Part shown: in pieces, positions 54,359 through 61,646 of the stretch
Numbering within the stretch: position 1 is the stretch's first letter
How the letters are laid out: the number at the start of each line of letters is the position of its first letter
NCBI RefSeq assembly: GCF_012979235.1
Contig: NZ_JAATWC010000001.1
Location: 563,001-627,000 of the forward strand
Length of the DNA stretch: 64,000 bases
DNA from: Dissulfurirhabdus thermomarina
GTDB taxonomy: Bacteria; Desulfobacterota; Dissulfuribacteria; Dissulfuribacterales; Dissulfurirhabdaceae
Direction: 5' to 3'
The notes under the pieces: model-generated
Seen by the model: the letters and a program-made list of their open reading frames with translations, nothing else
Told to the model about the DNA's origin: nothing
The model's database searches: none
Position numbers and translations under genes: made by a program

Positions 54359-55597
54359 CTAGACCAGTATGCCCACCACCGCCCCGGTCATGCAAGTGGC
54401 CAGGGTGCCGGAGACCAGGCACTTCGGCCCCAGGGCCACGATCTCCCCGCGCCGTTCGGGGACCATGGTGGCCAGGCCGCCGATGAGGATGCCGAGGCTG
54501 CCGGGGTTGGCGAAGCCGCAGAGGGCATAGGTCAGGATGATCCGGCTGCGGGGCGAGAGCGCGGCGCCCGGCAGGCGGGCCAGGTCGAGGTAGGCCAGGA
54601 ACTCGTTCAGGACGGTCTTGGTGCCGAGGAGGGCGCCGGCCGCCTGCGCCTCCCGCCAGGGGATGCCGGTGAGCCAGGCCACCGGGGCCATGGCCCGGCC
54701 GAGGAGCCCCTGGAGGGTGAACGGGCCGCCGCCCGGCCGGGGCAGGAGGGCGAGGGCCTGGTTGGCCAGGTGCACCAGGGCCACGAAGACCACCAGCATG
54801 GCCACGATGTTCAGGAGGAGGGCCGCGCCCTGGACCGTGCCGCGGGCGACGGCGTCCATGGCCCCGGCGGCCTCCGAGGGCGGGACGTCGCCGCCGCCGG
54901 TGGGCGGTGCCGCCTCCGGCACCATGATCCGGGCCACGGTCACGGCGGCCGGGGCGCTGATGAGGGAAGCGGTGAGGATGTGGCCCATGGCGTCCGGGAG
55001 CACCCCCCGGAGGATCTCGGCGTAGAGCACCATGACCGTTCCCGCGATGGTGGCCATGCCGCAGGTCATCACCGTGAAGAGTTCGCCCCGGGTGAGCCGG
55101 GCCAGGTAGGGCCGGACCAGGATCGGGGCCTCCACCATCCCCACGAAGACGTTGGCCGCGGCGGCGACCCCCACGGCACCGCCGACGCCGAGCCCCCGCT
55201 GGAGCAGCCGGGCGAAGGCCCGGACCACCGCGGGAAGGATGCGCCAGTGGAAGAGCAGGGCGGACAGGGCGCTCATCACGAGGACCAGGGGGAGGGCGCG
55301 GAAGGCCAGGACGTAGGTGGCCTCCGGCACCGTGACCGGGAAGGGCGGCGGCCCGCCGCCGAGGTAGCCGAAGACGAAGGCGGTGCCGGCCTGGGTGGCG
55401 TCTCCCAGGGCGGTCACGAGGCGGTTGAGGCCCAGGAAGACGGCCTTGCACGGGGGGAGCTTGAGCAGCAGAATAGCAAGGAGCAGCTGGAGCCCGAGCC
55501 CCGCCCCCGCCACCCGGAAGGGGAACCGGCGCCGGTCTTCGCCCAGGGCCCAGGCCAGGCCGGTGAGCACCAAGAGGCCGAAGAGACTCTGCCACAC
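54359..55597 (-). CDS. nupC: NupC-family nucleoside transporter
   Basis: The 412-residue concentrative nucleoside transporter has many hydrophobic helices. Motifs include the ANVFVGMVEAPILVRPYL region that binds nucleoside and sodium, GTKTVLNEFLAYLDL, and the C-terminal LCGFANPGSLGILIGGL. It brings nucleosides in with H+ or Na+. GTG at 55597 follows AGGAGGCGACGTC. It lies on its own or with the CoA-binding gene that begins 36 bp downstream. Confidence 0.93.
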   Translation of the reverse strand: MWQSLFGLLVLTGLAWALGEDRRRFPFRVAGAGLGLQLLLAILLLKLPPCKAVFLGLNRLVTALGDATQAGTAFVFGYLGGGPPPFPVTVPEATYVLAFRALPLVLVMSALSALLFHWRILPAVVRAFARLLQRGLGVGGAVGVAAAANVFVGMVEAPILVRPYLARLTRGELFTVMTCGMATIAGTVMVLYAEILRGVLPDAMGHILTASLISAPAAVTVARIMVPEAAPPTGGGDVPPSEAAGAMDAVARGTVQGAALLLNIVAMLVVFVALVHLANQALALLPRPGGGPFTLQGLLGRAMAPVAWLTGIPWREAQAAGALLGTKTVLNEFLAYLDLARLPGAALSPRSRIILTYALCGFANPGSLGILIGGLATMVPERRGEIVALGPKCLVSGTLATCMTGAVVGILV

Positions 55598-55688: not shown

Positions 55689-56837
55689 ATGCGGACCCCC
55701 CGGATCCTGGTCATAGAACCCTACCTCGGCGGCTCCCACGCGGCCTTTCTCCGGGGGCTCCAGCGGGCGGTTGCCGCCGAGTGGACCGTGATGGGGCTCC
55801 CGGCCCGGCAGTGGAAGTGGCGGATGCGCCTTGCGGCGCCCTTCTTCGCCGAGCGCCTGGCCGGGTGCCGGGACCGGTTCGACCGGGTCCTCTCTTCCAC
55901 CTACCTGGACGCCGCGGCCTTCCGGGGGCTCGCCCCGGCCTGGACCCGGTGCGTGCCGCTCCTCGCCTACTTCCACGAGAACCAGTTCGCCTACCCGGTG
56001 CAGGCGGAGGACGAGCGGGACTTCCACTTCGCCCTCACGAACCTCACCACGGCCCTGGCCGCCGACCGGCTGGCCTTCAACTCCGCCCACAACCTCGCAA
56101 CCTTCCTCGAGGGGGCCCGGCGCCTCCTCCGCGTGCCCCGGGACCTCGCCCTCGACGACCCGGCCGGCCGGATCCGTGCCCGGAGCACGGTGCTGCCCCC
56201 CGGGGTGGACTTCGCCGACATCGACCGGGCCCCGCGGCCGCCCCGCGACGGGGGGGCGCCGGTGGTGGTCTGGAACCACCGGTGGGAGCACGACAAGGAC
56301 CCGGAGACCTTCTTCGAGGTCCTCTTCCGGCTCGACCGGCGGGGTGTGCCCTTCCGGCTCGTGGTGCTCGGGCAGTCCTTCGAGCGGCAGCCGGCCGTCT
56401 TCCGGGCCGCCCGGCGGCGGCTGGGCCACCGGATCCTCCACTTCGGGACGGCCCCGGACCGGGCCTCCTACGCGGCCTGGCTGCGCCGGGGCGACGTGGC
56501 GGTCTCCACGGCGCGGCACGAGTTCTTCGGGATCGCCGTCCTCGAGGCGGTCCGGGCGGGATGCCGGCCGCTGCTCCCCCGGCGGCTCGCGTACCCGGAA
56601 CTCTTCCCCGGCGAGTTCCTCTACGAGGAGGGGACGCTCGAGGCGCGGCTCGAGGCCCTTCTGCGGGAGGGGTGCCCGGGGCTCGGCGCGGAGCGGGCCC
56701 GCGCCCTCACGGAACCCTTTTCCTGGGCCGCCCTGGGGGAGAGGTACCGGGCCTGGATCCTCGACGGCGCGGCGGGGGAGGCCGGGGGGCGGCCCGGCGG
56801 CGGGAAGGAGGCGGCAGATGCGGCCCCCCTGGGATGA
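55689..56837 (+). CDS. tRNA-queuosine alpha-mannosyltransferase-like glycosyltransferase (DUF3524, QTMAN/GTDC1 family)
   Basis: The 382-residue, two-domain GT4-like enzyme has an N-terminal DUF3524 domain. It begins RILVIEPYLGGSHAAFLRGL, with LPARQWKWRMRLAAPFF and LAYFHENQFAYPVQ, and is strikingly similar to human GTDC1/QTMAN, which mannosylates queuosine in tRNA-Asp. The C-terminal GT domain has WNHRWEHDKDPETFF and HEFFGIAVLEAVRAGC. In vertebrates this is a tRNA modification enzyme; whether bacterial relatives modify Q-tRNA is not shown by sequence. It overlaps the next gene by 20 bp. The divergent nucleoside transporter may be coincidental. Confidence 0.85.
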   Translation: MRTPRILVIEPYLGGSHAAFLRGLQRAVAAEWTVMGLPARQWKWRMRLAAPFFAERLAGCRDRFDRVLSSTYLDAAAFRGLAPAWTRCVPLLAYFHENQFAYPVQAEDERDFHFALTNLTTALAADRLAFNSAHNLATFLEGARRLLRVPRDLALDDPAGRIRARSTVLPPGVDFADIDRAPRPPRDGGAPVVVWNHRWEHDKDPETFFEVLFRLDRRGVPFRLVVLGQSFERQPAVFRAARRRLGHRILHFGTAPDRASYAAWLRRGDVAVSTARHEFFGIAVLEAVRAGCRPLLPRRLAYPELFPGEFLYEEGTLEARLEALLREGCPGLGAERARALTEPFSWAALGERYRAWILDGAAGEAGGRPGGGKEAADAAPLG

Positions 56838-57579
56838 GATCGCCGACGGCGTGCTTCGTTTCGTGGCGGCGCGGCGGAAGGCGGCCGGGGGCTACGCCGC
56901 CACCCCGCTCCTGCCCGCCACGGCGGAGGACACCTATCACGCCCTCCGGACCCTGGAGGCCCTGGAGGCGGCGGGGGCGGCCGTCCCGCCCCCGGATGCC
57001 GGCCTCCGGGAATGGATCGCCGGGGAGCTCGGGGTGCCGGGGCGCGACCCCCGCACGCTGTACCACCTGTGCTGGAGCGCCCGGCGGGTGGGGGTGCCGG
57101 CGGCCGGGCCCGCCCCGGGGGTGGGGGGGCGGGACACCCTTGAGGCCCGCTTCTGGCGCCACCGGCTCCGGGAGGCGGGGTGCGTCGCGGCCGGCCCGGC
57201 GGGGGCGCCGGCCCCGGCGCGGCGGCCCCCCGTGGTGCGCGAGGTATGGATGGCGCTGGTGCTCGCCCGGGCGGCGGGGGAGGCCCCCGGATGGGCCGCC
57301 GGCGCGGCGGCCTGGGTCCGGGCCTGCCAGAACGGCGACGGGGGCTTCGGGTGCCGGCCGGGGACGACCTCCTTCGTGGAACACTGCCACACGGCCCTCC
57401 GCGTACTGGCGATGCTCGGGGCCGTGCCCCGCGACCTGGCGGCCGCCCGGACCTACGTCCTCGCCTGCCGCACCGGCGCCGGCGGATTCGCCCGCATCCA
57501 CGGGGCGGCGGCCTTCCTCGACGCCACCCGCCATGCCGTGGGGGCCCTCCGGCTCCTCGACCGCTGGCGCCCCGCCTGA
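56818..57579 (+). CDS. Prenyltransferase/squalene-oxidase-repeat protein, function unknown
   Basis: The 253-residue protein has two or three alpha-helical repeats of the PF00432 type, including ACQNGDGGFGCRPGTTSFVE and ACRTGAGGFARIHGAAAFLD. It has no signal peptide. It is shorter than squalene cyclases and protein prenyltransferase beta-subunits, and the catalytic DxDD or zinc residues were not identified. ATG at 56818 follows GGAAGGAGGC and lies inside the end of the QTMAN-like gene, so the two are translationally coupled and probably share a pathway. No substrate is suggested. Confidence 0.72.
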   Translation: MRPPWDEIADGVLRFVAARRKAAGGYAATPLLPATAEDTYHALRTLEALEAAGAAVPPPDAGLREWIAGELGVPGRDPRTLYHLCWSARRVGVPAAGPAPGVGGRDTLEARFWRHRLREAGCVAAGPAGAPAPARRPPVVREVWMALVLARAAGEAPGWAAGAAAWVRACQNGDGGFGCRPGTTSFVEHCHTALRVLAMLGAVPRDLAAARTYVLACRTGAGGFARIHGAAAFLDATRHAVGALRLLDRWRPA

Positions 57580-57746: not shown

Positions 57747-58382
57747 GTGACCGAACCCGACACCAAGACCCGTCTCTTGGACGCCGCCGAGCGGCTCTTC
57801 GCCCGCGACGGCTACCACGGCACCTCGCTCCGGGCCATCACGGGGGCCGCCGGGGTGAACCTCGCCGCCGTGAACTACCACTTCGGCTCCAAGGAGGCCC
57901 TCATGGTGGCGGTCCTCGAACGGCGCCTGGTGCCGCTCAACCGGGCCCGGTCCCGGGGGGTGGCCGAGGCGGTGGCGGCGGCCCGGGCGCGCGGGCACCG
58001 GCCCCGGCCCCGCGAGATCCTCCGGGCCGTCCTCGTGCCGACCCTCCGGTTCATGGCGTCGGAGCCCGGGGCGCGGCACTTCGTGGCGCTGGTGGGGCGG
58101 GCCCACGCGGACCCCGACCCCACGGTCCGCGACACCTTCCGCCGCCTGGTGGCGCCGCTCCACCGGCAGGTCTTCTCGGCGCTGTCCGAGGCCCTGCCGC
58201 ACCTGCCGCCGGGGGTCCTCTACTGGCGGATCCTCTTCTTCCTGGGGGCCATGAACATCACCTTCCACGCCTGGACCACGCTGCCCCTGGTCCCGGAGGG
58301 GGTCCGGCCGCCCACCGGGGCGGACGAGCTGGTGGAGATCCTCCTCGACTTCGCGGCCGCGGGGATGGAGGCGCCGGCATGA
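57747..58382 (+). CDS. TetR/AcrR-family transcriptional repressor
   Basis: The 211-residue regulator has an N-terminal helix-turn-helix (RLLDAAERLFARDGYHGTSLRAIT; AAGVNLAAVNYHFGSKEAL) and a helical ligand-binding C-terminus. It is the first gene of an RND efflux operon and overlaps the outer-membrane factor gene by ATGA, so it most likely represses the pump. The ligand is unknown. GTG start at 57747 follows the promoter with the spacer palindrome noted just before it. Confidence 0.93.
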   Translation: MTEPDTKTRLLDAAERLFARDGYHGTSLRAITGAAGVNLAAVNYHFGSKEALMVAVLERRLVPLNRARSRGVAEAVAAARARGHRPRPREILRAVLVPTLRFMASEPGARHFVALVGRAHADPDPTVRDTFRRLVAPLHRQVFSALSEALPHLPPGVLYWRILFFLGAMNITFHAWTTLPLVPEGVRPPTGADELVEILLDFAAAGMEAPA

Positions 58383-59836
58383 GGGCCGGGGACGGCGCGG
58401 CCCGGTGGCGGGGCGCGGCGGCCCTCTGCGTCCTCGCGGCGGTGGCGGGGCTCTCCGGCTGCGCCCGCTACGGGGACCGCGTCCCCGGGGCCCCCGTGGC
58501 CGTCCCGGCGGCCTACGCCGAGGCCGGCGCCGCCGCCAACGCCACGGCGGCCCGGATCGGCCGCTGGTGGGAGCGCTTCGGCGATCCAAGCCTCGACGCC
58601 CTGGTGGCGGCGGCGCTGCGGCACAACCCGGGGCTGGGCCAGGCCCTGGCCCGGCTCCGGCAGGCCGAGGCCCGTCTCCGCGTCGCGGGGGCGCCCCTCT
58701 TGCCCACCCTGGACGCCTCCGGCGAGCTCAGCCGCGACAAGCAGACGGGCTTCTTCGGCCCCACCACCGGGACCAACTACCGGTATTCCCTGGCCGCGGG
58801 CTACGAGCTGGATCTCTGGGGAAAGCTCCGCAACCGCCGGAAGGCCGCCCGGTTCGAGGCCGGGGCGGCCCGCGAGGACGCCAAGGCCCTCTTCCTCTCC
58901 CTGACCTACCAGGTGGCCGACCTCTACTTCGAGGCCCGGGAGACGGCGGCCCGGCACACCCTGGCGGAGCGCCGGGCGGCGGTGGCGGCGGAGATCCTCC
59001 GGCGCGTGGAGGCGCGCTACCGGGAGGGGCTCGTGGACGCGGGCGAGGTCTACCGGGCCCGGCGGGACCTCGCCGCCGCGGAGACGGCCCGCGCGGCCCT
59101 CGCGGCCGAGTCCGCCGCGGCCCGGCACGCCCTGGCGGTGCTCACCGGCCGGTTCCCGGCACAGCTCGAGGCCCTGCCCGGCGGGCCGCTCCCGGCCCCC
59201 CCGCCGCTTCCTGCCGTGGGCCTCCCGTCGGATCTCCTCGTCCGGCGGCCGGACATCGAGGCGGCGCTCCTCCGGATCCGGGCCCGGGACGCCGAGCTCG
59301 GCGCCGCCGTGGCCGACCGGTTCCCGTCGGTGAATCTCCTGGCGACCCTGGGCGAGAGCCGGGTGGACTACGGGGCCGGCGCGGTGACCGGCCCCTTCTG
59401 GCGCCTCGCCGCCGACCTCGCCCTCCCCCTGGTGGACGGGGGGCGGCGGCGGGCCGAGGCGGCGCGTTCGCGGGCGGCGGTGGCGGAGGCCTTCGAGGCC
59501 TACCGCGAGGCCCTCCTCCGGGCGGCCCGGGAGGTGGAGGACGCCCTGGCCCGGGAGCGGGCCGAGGCGGGACACGCGGCGGCGGCGGAGCGGGACTGGG
59601 CCGCGGCCCGGTTGGCGGCCGACCGGGAGGCGAATCGCTACCGGGCGGGCCTTTCCGACTGGCTCTCCCTCCAGCAGGCGCGCCTGGCGGCGCTGGCCGC
59701 CGAGTCGGACCTCGCCGCCGCCCGCCGGGCGTGGCTCTCCGCCCGGCTGGGCCTCGTCCGGGCCCTCGGCGGCGACTGGATGGACGAGACCCTGGCCCGG
59801 GCGCAGGGGACCGAAGGCGATGGAGAATACCGATGA
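58379..59836 (+). CDS. NodT-family outer-membrane efflux lipoprotein (TolC/OprM-like)
   Basis: The 485-residue outer-membrane factor of tripartite pumps starts with a lipoprotein signal ending in LSGC at about residue 29, the acylated cysteine. Two TolC-type repeat halves follow, each with long helices; GRWWERFGDPSLDALVAAAL and ALRHNPGLGQALARLRQAEARL are typical. It forms the exit duct for the downstream RND pump. Unlike most such operons, 622 bp of repeat-rich DNA separate it from the adaptor gene. Confidence 0.92.
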   Translation: MRAGDGAARWRGAAALCVLAAVAGLSGCARYGDRVPGAPVAVPAAYAEAGAAANATAARIGRWWERFGDPSLDALVAAALRHNPGLGQALARLRQAEARLRVAGAPLLPTLDASGELSRDKQTGFFGPTTGTNYRYSLAAGYELDLWGKLRNRRKAARFEAGAAREDAKALFLSLTYQVADLYFEARETAARHTLAERRAAVAAEILRRVEARYREGLVDAGEVYRARRDLAAAETARAALAAESAAARHALAVLTGRFPAQLEALPGGPLPAPPPLPAVGLPSDLLVRRPDIEAALLRIRARDAELGAAVADRFPSVNLLATLGESRVDYGAGAVTGPFWRLAADLALPLVDGGRRRAEAARSRAAVAEAFEAYREALLRAAREVEDALARERAEAGHAAAAERDWAAARLAADREANRYRAGLSDWLSLQQARLAALAAESDLAAARRAWLSARLGLVRALGGDWMDETLARAQGTEGDGEYR

Positions 59837-59837
59837 A

Positions 59838-60321
59838 GATGGCGTCACAAAAATACGCAGGCTGGGGCGGTGCCCCGGGCGCCGCGCGCATCCCCGCGGC
59901 GTCCTCCGGTGTCACCCCTTCCCACGGGATCTTCGAACGCCCATGGGGCCAGGGCCCAGCCATCCGTGCCGATGCCGGAATGTTATTGCCGGGCCATGCC
60001 ATGCAGGTTCCGGGGGACGGCACAAGAGGCCGATCATGGGCCGCGGCGGCTCTTGCCTGGCCATCCACGCAGAGGACCTTTCGGGCCATCGCCGCCCCCC
60101 GCCCTCTGTGGTGCCGAAGGCGTCGGCAGCGGGGCCGGAAGGAGCGCGACGAACTGTTCGAGCCCCGCGGAGCGGGGCGAGTCCTCGTCGCGCCCGGCCC
60201 CGCCGAGACGCCGAGGGGACCCCGCCCCGCCCCGCCTTGGCGGAGCAGGCCGGGGCGGGGCGCCACAGTGGGCTGCCTTTTCTTTTGGTTACTTTTCTTT
60301 GGGCACGCAAAGAAGAGTAAC
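59838..60321 (+). repeat. Hairpin-rich non-coding element between two efflux genes
   Basis: Three strong stems follow each other: GCGCGACGA/TCGTCGCGC (60144-60193) enclosing GCCCCGC/GCGGGGC; an 11-bp GCCCCGCCCCG stem (60224-60261); and GTTACTTTTCTTTG/CAAAGAAGAGTAAC (60288-60321), a 14-bp stem with one mismatch. The last stem matches a repeat with TTACTTTTCTTTGG hairpins scattered through many proteobacterial genomes. The left end, 59838-59858, resembles the 25-base repeat at 16880 (three mismatches in 21). No protein-coding signal is seen through 60458. Confidence 0.65.
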
Positions 60322-60458
60322 GCCCGCCGCAGGAGGCCGCCGTCCCGAGCCGGCACCACAACTGGCGGCTGGGCGGCAATCGCATCGCAGCGGCGTTTCT
60401 TCGGCTGTTCTCGTCATGGCTTCGCCTTTCATTCCGAGCACTTTTCGCGAGGCCGCCC

Positions 60459-61646
60459 ATGAAGACCAAGCGACGCATCTTCCTCGTGGGGCTGCCGCTG
60501 GCGGTGATTCTCGCGGGGGCTCTCGCCATGAAGGGGCTCGAGGTCCTGCGGCCCGCGCCGCGGAAGGCCGCCCCGCCCCCGGCCGGGGCCCTGGTCCGGG
60601 TCATCGAGGTGCACCGGGTGGACCGGACGGCCCGGGTCCTCGGCACCGGCACGGTCCAGCCCCTCCGGGAGGTGACCCTCGTGCCCCAGGTGGGCGGCAA
60701 GGTGGTGGAGGTGGCCCCCGGGTTCGTGGCGGGGGGCTTCTTCCGGGCCGGGGATCTCCTCTTCCGGATCGAGGACGCGGACTACCGGCTCGCGGTCCGC
60801 AAGGCCCGGGCGGCCCTGGCCCGGGCGAAGGTGGAGTTGGCCCAGGTGGAGGGCAAGGCCCGGGTGGCCCGGGAGGAATGGGAGCGGATCGAGGGCAAGG
60901 GGGCGCCGCCGCCGAGCCCGCTCGTCCTCTACGGCCCACAGCTCGAGGAGGCCCGGGCCGCCGTGGCCGCCGCCGAGGCCGATCTTGCAAAGGCCGAGCT
61001 GGATCTCGCCCGCACCCGGGTCTCGGCCCCCTTCGACTGCCGGGTTCGCTCCGAGCAGGTGGAGGTGGGCCAGGTGGTGAACCCCGGCGCCCAGGTGGCC
61101 GTCCTCGCCGGGACGGCCGCCGCCGAGATCGTCGTTCCGCTGCCGGTGGCGGAACTCGCCTGGATCCGCTTCCCCCCGGCGGGGTCGGACGAGGGCGGCT
61201 CCCCGGCCCGGGTGCGCTACCGGGCCGCGGGGGTCGACCTGTCGTGGCGGGGCCGGGTGGTGCGGGCCCTGGGCGAGGTGGACCCAAAGGGCCGCATGGC
61301 CCGGGTGGTGGTCCGGGTGGACCACCCCTACGGGGGCCGGGCGGGCGACCCCGGCCCGGCCGGCGACCTCGCCGAGGGACTCTTCGTGGCGGTGGAGATC
61401 GAGGGGCGGTCCCTTCGGGGGGTGGTGGCCGTGCCGAGGAGCGTCCTCCACGAGGGGGAGACCGTGTGGATCATGGACGGGGCCCGCCGGCTCAGGGTCC
61501 GCCGGCTGCAGGTGGCCCGTTACGAAGGCGACGAGGTCCTGGCGGCCGGGGGCCTCGACGACGGCGACCGGGTGGTGGTGACCCCCCTCGTGGGGGCCGC
61601 CGACGGCATGCGGCTGCGCCTGGCGGCGGGGGGAGGCGGCCGGTGA
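60459..61646 (+). CDS. RND efflux membrane-fusion (adaptor) protein
   Basis: The 395-residue, AcrA-like periplasmic adaptor has an N-terminal membrane helix (LPLAVILAGALAMKG), the lipoyl/barrel-sandwich halves (LVPQVGGKVVEVAPGFVAGG and ARTRVSAPFDCRVRSEQV), a coiled-coil hairpin (about residues 105-190) and beta-barrel parts (VAVPRSVLHEGETVWIM). It links the inner-membrane pump to the outer-membrane factor. Its stop overlaps the pump gene start as GTGA. The start ATG at 60459 follows the repeat-rich stretch. Confidence 0.93.
   Translation: MKTKRRIFLVGLPLAVILAGALAMKGLEVLRPAPRKAAPPPAGALVRVIEVHRVDRTARVLGTGTVQPLREVTLVPQVGGKVVEVAPGFVAGGFFRAGDLLFRIEDADYRLAVRKARAALARAKVELAQVEGKARVAREEWERIEGKGAPPPSPLVLYGPQLEEARAAVAAAEADLAKAELDLARTRVSAPFDCRVRSEQVEVGQVVNPGAQVAVLAGTAAAEIVVPLPVAELAWIRFPPAGSDEGGSPARVRYRAAGVDLSWRGRVVRALGEVDPKGRMARVVVRVDHPYGGRAGDPGPAGDLAEGLFVAVEIEGRSLRGVVAVPRSVLHEGETVWIMDGARRLRVRRLQVARYEGDEVLAAGGLDDGDRVVVTPLVGAADGMRLRLAAGGGGR

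What the first reader, a model, noticed from the sequence alone, without database searches (positions are those of the whole stretch)
55689..56837. Bacterial homologue of the vertebrate tRNA-queuosine mannosyltransferase
The N-terminal DUF3524 domain closely resembles GTDC1/QTMAN (EPYLGGSH, LPARQWKW, FHENQFAYPVQ). If active it would add mannose to queuosine in tRNA-Asp, or modify another molecule.
Basis: partly seen in the sequence, partly recalled or inferred. Interest (0 to 1): 0.62.

Follow-up and report, generated by a model that had tools for sequence, protein, structure and literature searches.

The report
Bacterial homologue of animal tRNA-mannosylating enzyme
A bacterium carries an intact, well-conserved relative of the animal enzyme that attaches mannose to the tRNA base queuosine, in a genome that can make queuosine, so bacteria may also sugar-coat this base, but nobody has measured it here.

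Summary
ORF 55689-56837 (+, 382 aa) is an intact two-domain protein: Pfam QTMAN_N (PF12038, full length, 177 bits, E 2.6e-52) followed by a GT4 glycosyltransferase domain. The AlphaFold model (pLDDT 90.9) is a GT-B fold whose nearest solved structures are retaining GT4 enzymes, several using GDP-mannose. QTMAN_N is patchy in bacteria: 23/198 genomes of the phylum, 11/296 Nitrospirota, 0/14 controls, 0/6 sampled same-order genomes. Nearly all carriers have tgt, but so do non-carriers, so co-occurrence does not discriminate. No Q gene lies beside the gene in about 90 loci. Of 45 columns conserved in at least 97% of bacterial members, 42 match human GTDC1/QTMAN (human sequence recalled from memory, checked only by its Pfam score). 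The window protein carries the human-type HEFFG motif; a minority of bacterial members has QENFG or HDFFG. Best explanation: a retaining alpha-mannosyltransferase acting on Q34 of tRNA, probably tRNA-Asp. Family and predicted fold are shown; donor, acceptor and tRNA specificity are inferred. Reviews read describe mannosyl-Q as eukaryotic only. Pfam already covers the family.

The parts
55689..56837 (+). QTMAN-family glycosyltransferase gene, 382 aa
55701..56207 (+). N-terminal QTMAN_N (PF12038, ex-DUF3524) domain, residues 5-173
   Evidence: 177.5 bits, profile 1-168 of 168
56244..56759 (+). C-terminal GT4 domain (PF00534, matched at residues 186-293; domain drawn to 357 from alignment and model)
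55716..55739 (+). EPYLGGSH motif, residues 10-17; E10, G15, S16, H17 invariant in the family
55797..55820 (+). LPARQWKW motif, residues 37-44
55971..56003 (+). FHENQFAYPVQ motif, residues 95-105; H96, E97, Q99, Y102, P103 invariant
56271..56315 (+). WNHRWEHDKDPETFF motif, residues 195-209, one of the most conserved stretches of the family
56517..56546 (+). HEFFGIAVLE, residues 277-286: the E-x7-E element of GT4 enzymes (E278, E286), human-type HEFFG variant
   Evidence: role of E-x7-E from general knowledge of GT4
56818..57579 (+). Downstream ORF (253 aa, PF00432 prenyltransferase toroid repeat) overlapping the gene's stop by 20 nt; probably co-translated, not conserved beside the gene elsewhere
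54359..55597 (-). Divergently transcribed CNT-type nucleoside transporter; not conserved beside the gene elsewhere

Best explanation
The gene encodes a bacterial member of the QTMAN (GTDC1) family: a GT-B fold, GT4, retaining glycosyltransferase. It most likely takes mannose from GDP-mannose and attaches it with alpha configuration to the cyclopentenediol of queuosine at position 34 of tRNA, most likely tRNA-Asp, after QueA, QueH and Tgt have made Q. Shown here: intact gene, family, predicted fold, conserved motifs, presence of the Q pathway and of GDP-mannose synthesis. Inferred: donor sugar, acceptor, linkage and tRNA specificity.
For: QTMAN_N over full length plus GT4 domain. Confident GT-B model, pLDDT 90.9, nearest to retaining GT4 structures including GDP-mannose users 7qsg (Z 28.8), PimB' 3oka (Z 25.7) and PimA 2gej (Z 23.5). 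A retaining enzyme fits the alpha linkage of natural manQ (PMC8654956). Own genome: tgt 494 bits, queA 380 bits, queH 203 bits, ManC beta-helix two hits. 42 of 45 bacterial near-invariant columns are identical in human GTDC1, with 44% identity over the C-terminal 167 aligned residues and 31% over the N-terminal 175 (human sequence recalled from memory, scoring 228 bits to PF12038), whereas the solved GT4 structures listed are only 10-20% identical. The window protein has the human-type HEFFG motif. Carriers with tgt and queA: 22 of 23 in the phylum; the exception, G041, is 85% complete and has queH. 45 of 50 further carriers have tgt, as do 11 of 11 in Nitrospirota.
Against: No measured mannosyl-Q in any bacterium in the papers read. 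Q genes are as common in non-carriers, so co-occurrence has no discriminating power. No Q gene beside the gene in about 90 loci. Five of 50 carrier genomes show no tgt (completeness unknown). One family of carriers (f50) shows no ManC hit, though the f50 enzyme examined is of the other motif type. tRNA-Asp specificity was not testable.
Confidence: 0.6

Rival explanations
1. It glycosylates Q in tRNA but with another sugar, another hydroxyl or another tRNA than animal QTMAN (for example Tyr, His or Asn, or all four).
For: Bacterial members split into HEF[FY]G, QENFG and HDFFG motif types, suggesting some change of donor or acceptor in the family; three f50 genomes lack a ManC hit and have a true GluQRS, and the one f50 enzyme examined is QENFG.
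Against: The window protein is of the human-type HEFFG class and its genome has ManC.
Confidence: 0.2
2. It is a GT4 enzyme recruited to a non-tRNA acceptor such as a lipid, polysaccharide or small molecule, with no role in tRNA.
For: GT4 is a family with very varied acceptors; nearest structures act on many small acceptors; no linkage to Q genes.
Against: The QTMAN_N domain and almost all family-invariant residues are kept between bacteria and human. The gene is not in a polysaccharide or lipid gene cluster here or in most relatives examined, whose recurrent neighbours are mixed housekeeping genes. Carriers nearly all have Q genes.
Confidence: 0.17
3. Inactive or relic gene.
For: Absent from the six sampled relatives of the same order.
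Against: Intact, all family-invariant residues present, GC-rich like its surroundings with GC3 of 95%.
Confidence: 0.03

Closest known systems
tRNA-queuosine alpha-mannosyltransferase (QTMAN, GTDC1) of animals
   Same: Same domain order (QTMAN_N then GT4), same motifs, 42 of 45 family-conserved columns, Pfam PF12038
   Different: Bacterial; lacks the long insert between the two domains seen in the recalled human protein; activity unmeasured
Retaining GT4 GDP-mannose enzymes (PimA, PimB', methylmannose polysaccharide mannosyltransferase)
   Same: GT-B fold, E-x7-E element, probable donor
   Different: 19-20% identity, lipid or sugar acceptors (general knowledge); not in the QTMAN_N family
GluQRS (YadB), bacterial glutamyl-Q tRNA-Asp synthetase
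   Same: Modifies Q of tRNA-Asp (PMC7694415)
   Different: Unrelated protein, adds glutamate; in this genome only a sub-threshold hit in a 524-residue open frame, as expected of ordinary GluRS

Membership tests
QTMAN family (PF12038 + GT4) | QTMAN_N domain above curated cut-off | tested here: met
   177.5 bits against 25, full length
QTMAN family (PF12038 + GT4) | C-terminal GT4 domain with E-x7-E | tested here: met
   PF00534 38.8 bits against 26.4; E278/E286 in alignment
QTMAN family (PF12038 + GT4) | GT-B fold | tested here: met
   predicted model pLDDT 90.9, Z 23-30 to GT4 structures
QTMAN family (PF12038 + GT4) | Residues conserved with the characterised human enzyme | tested here: inconclusive
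   42 of 45 columns identical, but the human sequence was recalled from memory and supported only by its Pfam score
QTMAN enzyme (function) | Q pathway present in the host | tested here: met
   tgt, queA, queH in G000; Q itself not measured
QTMAN enzyme (function) | GDP-mannose synthesis present in the host | tested here: met
   ManC beta-helix domain, two hits in G000; by gene content only
QTMAN enzyme (function) | Carriers of the gene always have the Q pathway, more than non-carriers | tested here: inconclusive
   22/23, 45/50 and 11/11 carriers have tgt, but so do 191/198 and 274/296 of all genomes
QTMAN enzyme (function) | Transfers alpha-mannose to the allylic hydroxyl of Q34 of tRNA-Asp | not testable with these tools
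   needs mass spectrometry or an in vitro assay

The most novel reading that the evidence does not exclude
Bacteria make mannosyl-queuosine (or another hexosyl-Q), a modification described as eukaryotic, and animal QTMAN belongs to a family that is also bacterial; subfamilies with QENFG or HDFFG motifs may make further, unknown Q glycosides.
Probability: 0.6. Interest if true: 0.7.

Novelty: new member of a known kind. Interest (0 to 1): 0.5.

Why it matters
If active, it would place a tRNA modification described as eukaryotic (PMC7694415; vertebrate in PMC12710937) in bacteria. It would also give a simple microbial system that makes its own Q for asking what mannosyl-Q does in decoding GAU/GAC, and would bear on the origin of animal QTMAN. 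The homology itself is already recorded in Pfam, so the surprise is moderate.

Tried and rejected
Q-pathway co-occurrence as a test: near-universal Q genes in Desulfobacterota (191/198) and Nitrospirota (274/296) leave no power; 11/11 in Nitrospirota carriers would occur by chance about 40% of the time. GluQRS exclusivity: the sampled phylum genomes mostly lack GluQRS, so uninformative; three f50 carriers have both. Second tgt copies seemed linked to carriers in the first set of 36 genomes but are common in non-carriers: rejected. ManC on the same contig as the gene in G145 turned out to be about 7 kb away with unrelated housekeeping genes between them. Neighbourhood analysis found FtsY, IspH, AlgH, RlmH, shikimate kinase and aminotransferase-like neighbours (named from their sequence by eye, not scanned), none pointing to Q. 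Plasmids, phages and viral contigs: only generic GT4 matches or none. PDB by sequence: no chain for the protein alone, and the profile found only generic GT4s plus weak, chance-like hits; no QTMAN structure appeared in the fold lists. Paper searches for bacterial QTMAN: nothing. In one search three probes were picked from wrong frames; repeated correctly. The tree is the quick one; the window gene has no well-supported close sister in it.

Full report
Observation. The ORF at 55689-56837 (+) is real and intact: 382 aa, ATG start. Its first 173 residues match Pfam PF12038 QTMAN_N, the former DUF3524, end to end (177.5 bits, cut-off 25, E 2.6e-52), followed by a GT4 domain (PF00534, E 9e-10). It is the only such gene in the 2.46 Mb, 99% complete genome.

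Relatives. A scan of genome contigs found at least 444 relatives; the best 80 (46-61% identity) are in Nitrospirota and Desulfobacterota, mostly Desulfobulbales. In the window's own phylum 23 of 198 genomes carry the domain, including 0 of 6 sampled from the same order. I take the phylum to be Desulfobacterota, because the G041 locus (L006) matches a 'Syntrophobacteria bacterium' record (L020) with identical coordinates, length and identity. In the phylum of G203, a Nitrospiraceae record, 11 of 296 carry it, and 0 of 14 well-known control genomes do. It is absent from plasmids, phages and viral contigs except for generic GT4 matches. So it is a patchy, chromosomal gene. The gene's GC3 is 95% in a 72% GC window, so no recent foreign composition is visible.

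Fold and mechanism. AlphaFold2 on a 58-sequence alignment gave pLDDT 90.9 and pTM 0.89. The model is a GT-B fold; the best structural matches are retaining GT4 enzymes, among them the GDP-mannose users 7qsg, PimB' and PimA. Residues 277-286 (HEFFGIAVLE) carry the E-x7-E element of GT4 enzymes (role from general knowledge). A retaining enzyme using GDP-alpha-mannose gives an alpha-mannoside, which is the linkage established for natural manQ: alpha, on the allylic hydroxyl (PMC8654956; also PMC12518689).

Comparison with the animal enzyme. No eukaryotic sequence was available in the collections, so I used the human GTDC1 sequence as I recall it. It scores 228 bits to PF12038, which shows the recall is at least family-faithful. 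BLASTP against the window protein gives 44% identity over the C-terminal 167 aligned residues and 31% over the N-terminal 175. Of 45 columns conserved in at least 97% of the bacterial proteins, 42 are identical in the human protein. The solved GT4 structures listed are only 10-20% identical. This is far more than shared fold; it suggests the donor and acceptor sites are kept. Because the human sequence is recalled, this step is a strong lead rather than a test and should be repeated with the database entry.

Subfamilies. The GT4 motif at 277-281 is HEF[FY]G in 85 of the 94 aligned sequences, including the window protein and human. It is QENFG in five, HDFFG in three and QEYFG in one. In the quick tree these variants fall outside the well-supported 81-row clade that holds the window protein; the recalled human sequence also falls outside it, on a long branch. 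The f50 genome examined (G123) has the QENFG type. All three f50 genomes have a true GluQRS and no ManC hit, so the variant types may differ in donor or target. This is a lead, not a result.

Host pathway. The own genome has tgt (494 bits), queA (380 bits) and queH (203 bits) over their cut-offs, and two ManC beta-helix hits. No queG match was found, but QueH does the same step (PMC7694415). GluQRS is only a sub-threshold match in a 524-residue open frame, as expected for GluRS. The refuter 'no Q pathway in the genome' is therefore not met. Across carriers, 22 of 23 phylum genomes have tgt and queA; the exception is 85% complete and has queH. 45 of 50 other carriers have tgt, and 11 of 11 in Nitrospirota. 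However 191 of 198 and 274 of 296 of all genomes in these phyla have tgt, so this is consistency, not evidence of linkage.

Context. Downstream at 56818-57579 an ORF with a prenyltransferase toroid domain overlaps the stop by 20 nt; upstream, divergent, is a CNT nucleoside transporter. Neither is conserved beside the gene elsewhere. In the relatives the recurrent neighbours look like housekeeping genes, and no tgt, queA, queH or gluQRS lies within the held flanks of the QTMAN loci.

Known or new. Reviews assign manQ to eukaryotes and not bacteria (PMC7694415) or to vertebrates (PMC12710937). Searches of the held library found no paper on a bacterial QTMAN; the library is incomplete and the original QTMAN paper was not found in it. 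The Pfam family already names the domain after QTMAN and matches these bacterial proteins, so the homology is not new. A measured bacterial manQ would, as far as I could check, be new.

Verdict. A genuine member of the QTMAN family, in a host equipped with the genes for Q and GDP-mannose. Likelihood that it glycosylates Q in tRNA: about 0.8, of which mannose on tRNA-Asp about 0.6; both are my judgement, not computed.

Noticed in passing
L002, L003, L005, L008, L009, L105 (QENFG); L004, L007, L011 (HDFFG); L013 (QEYFG): QTMAN-family subgroups in bacteria with a changed GT4 motif; three f50 genomes, one confirmed to have the QENFG type, have true GluQRS and no ManC hit.
   Followed up: partly
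L103, L106, L107: A second full-length tgt lies near what look like branched-chain amino-acid ABC transporter genes (clearest in L103 and L106); two-tgt genomes are common in the phylum.
   Followed up: partly
window 56818-57579: Small protein with a prenyltransferase alpha-alpha toroid domain, overlapping the QTMAN stop codon by 20 nt; no relative beside QTMAN in other loci.
   Followed up: partly
window 54359-55597: Divergent CNT-type nucleoside transporter next to the gene; whether it imports Q-related nucleosides is unknown.
   Followed up: no
window 57747-61646: TetR-family regulator followed by an outer-membrane efflux protein and an HlyD-type fusion protein: a typical efflux operon.
   Followed up: no
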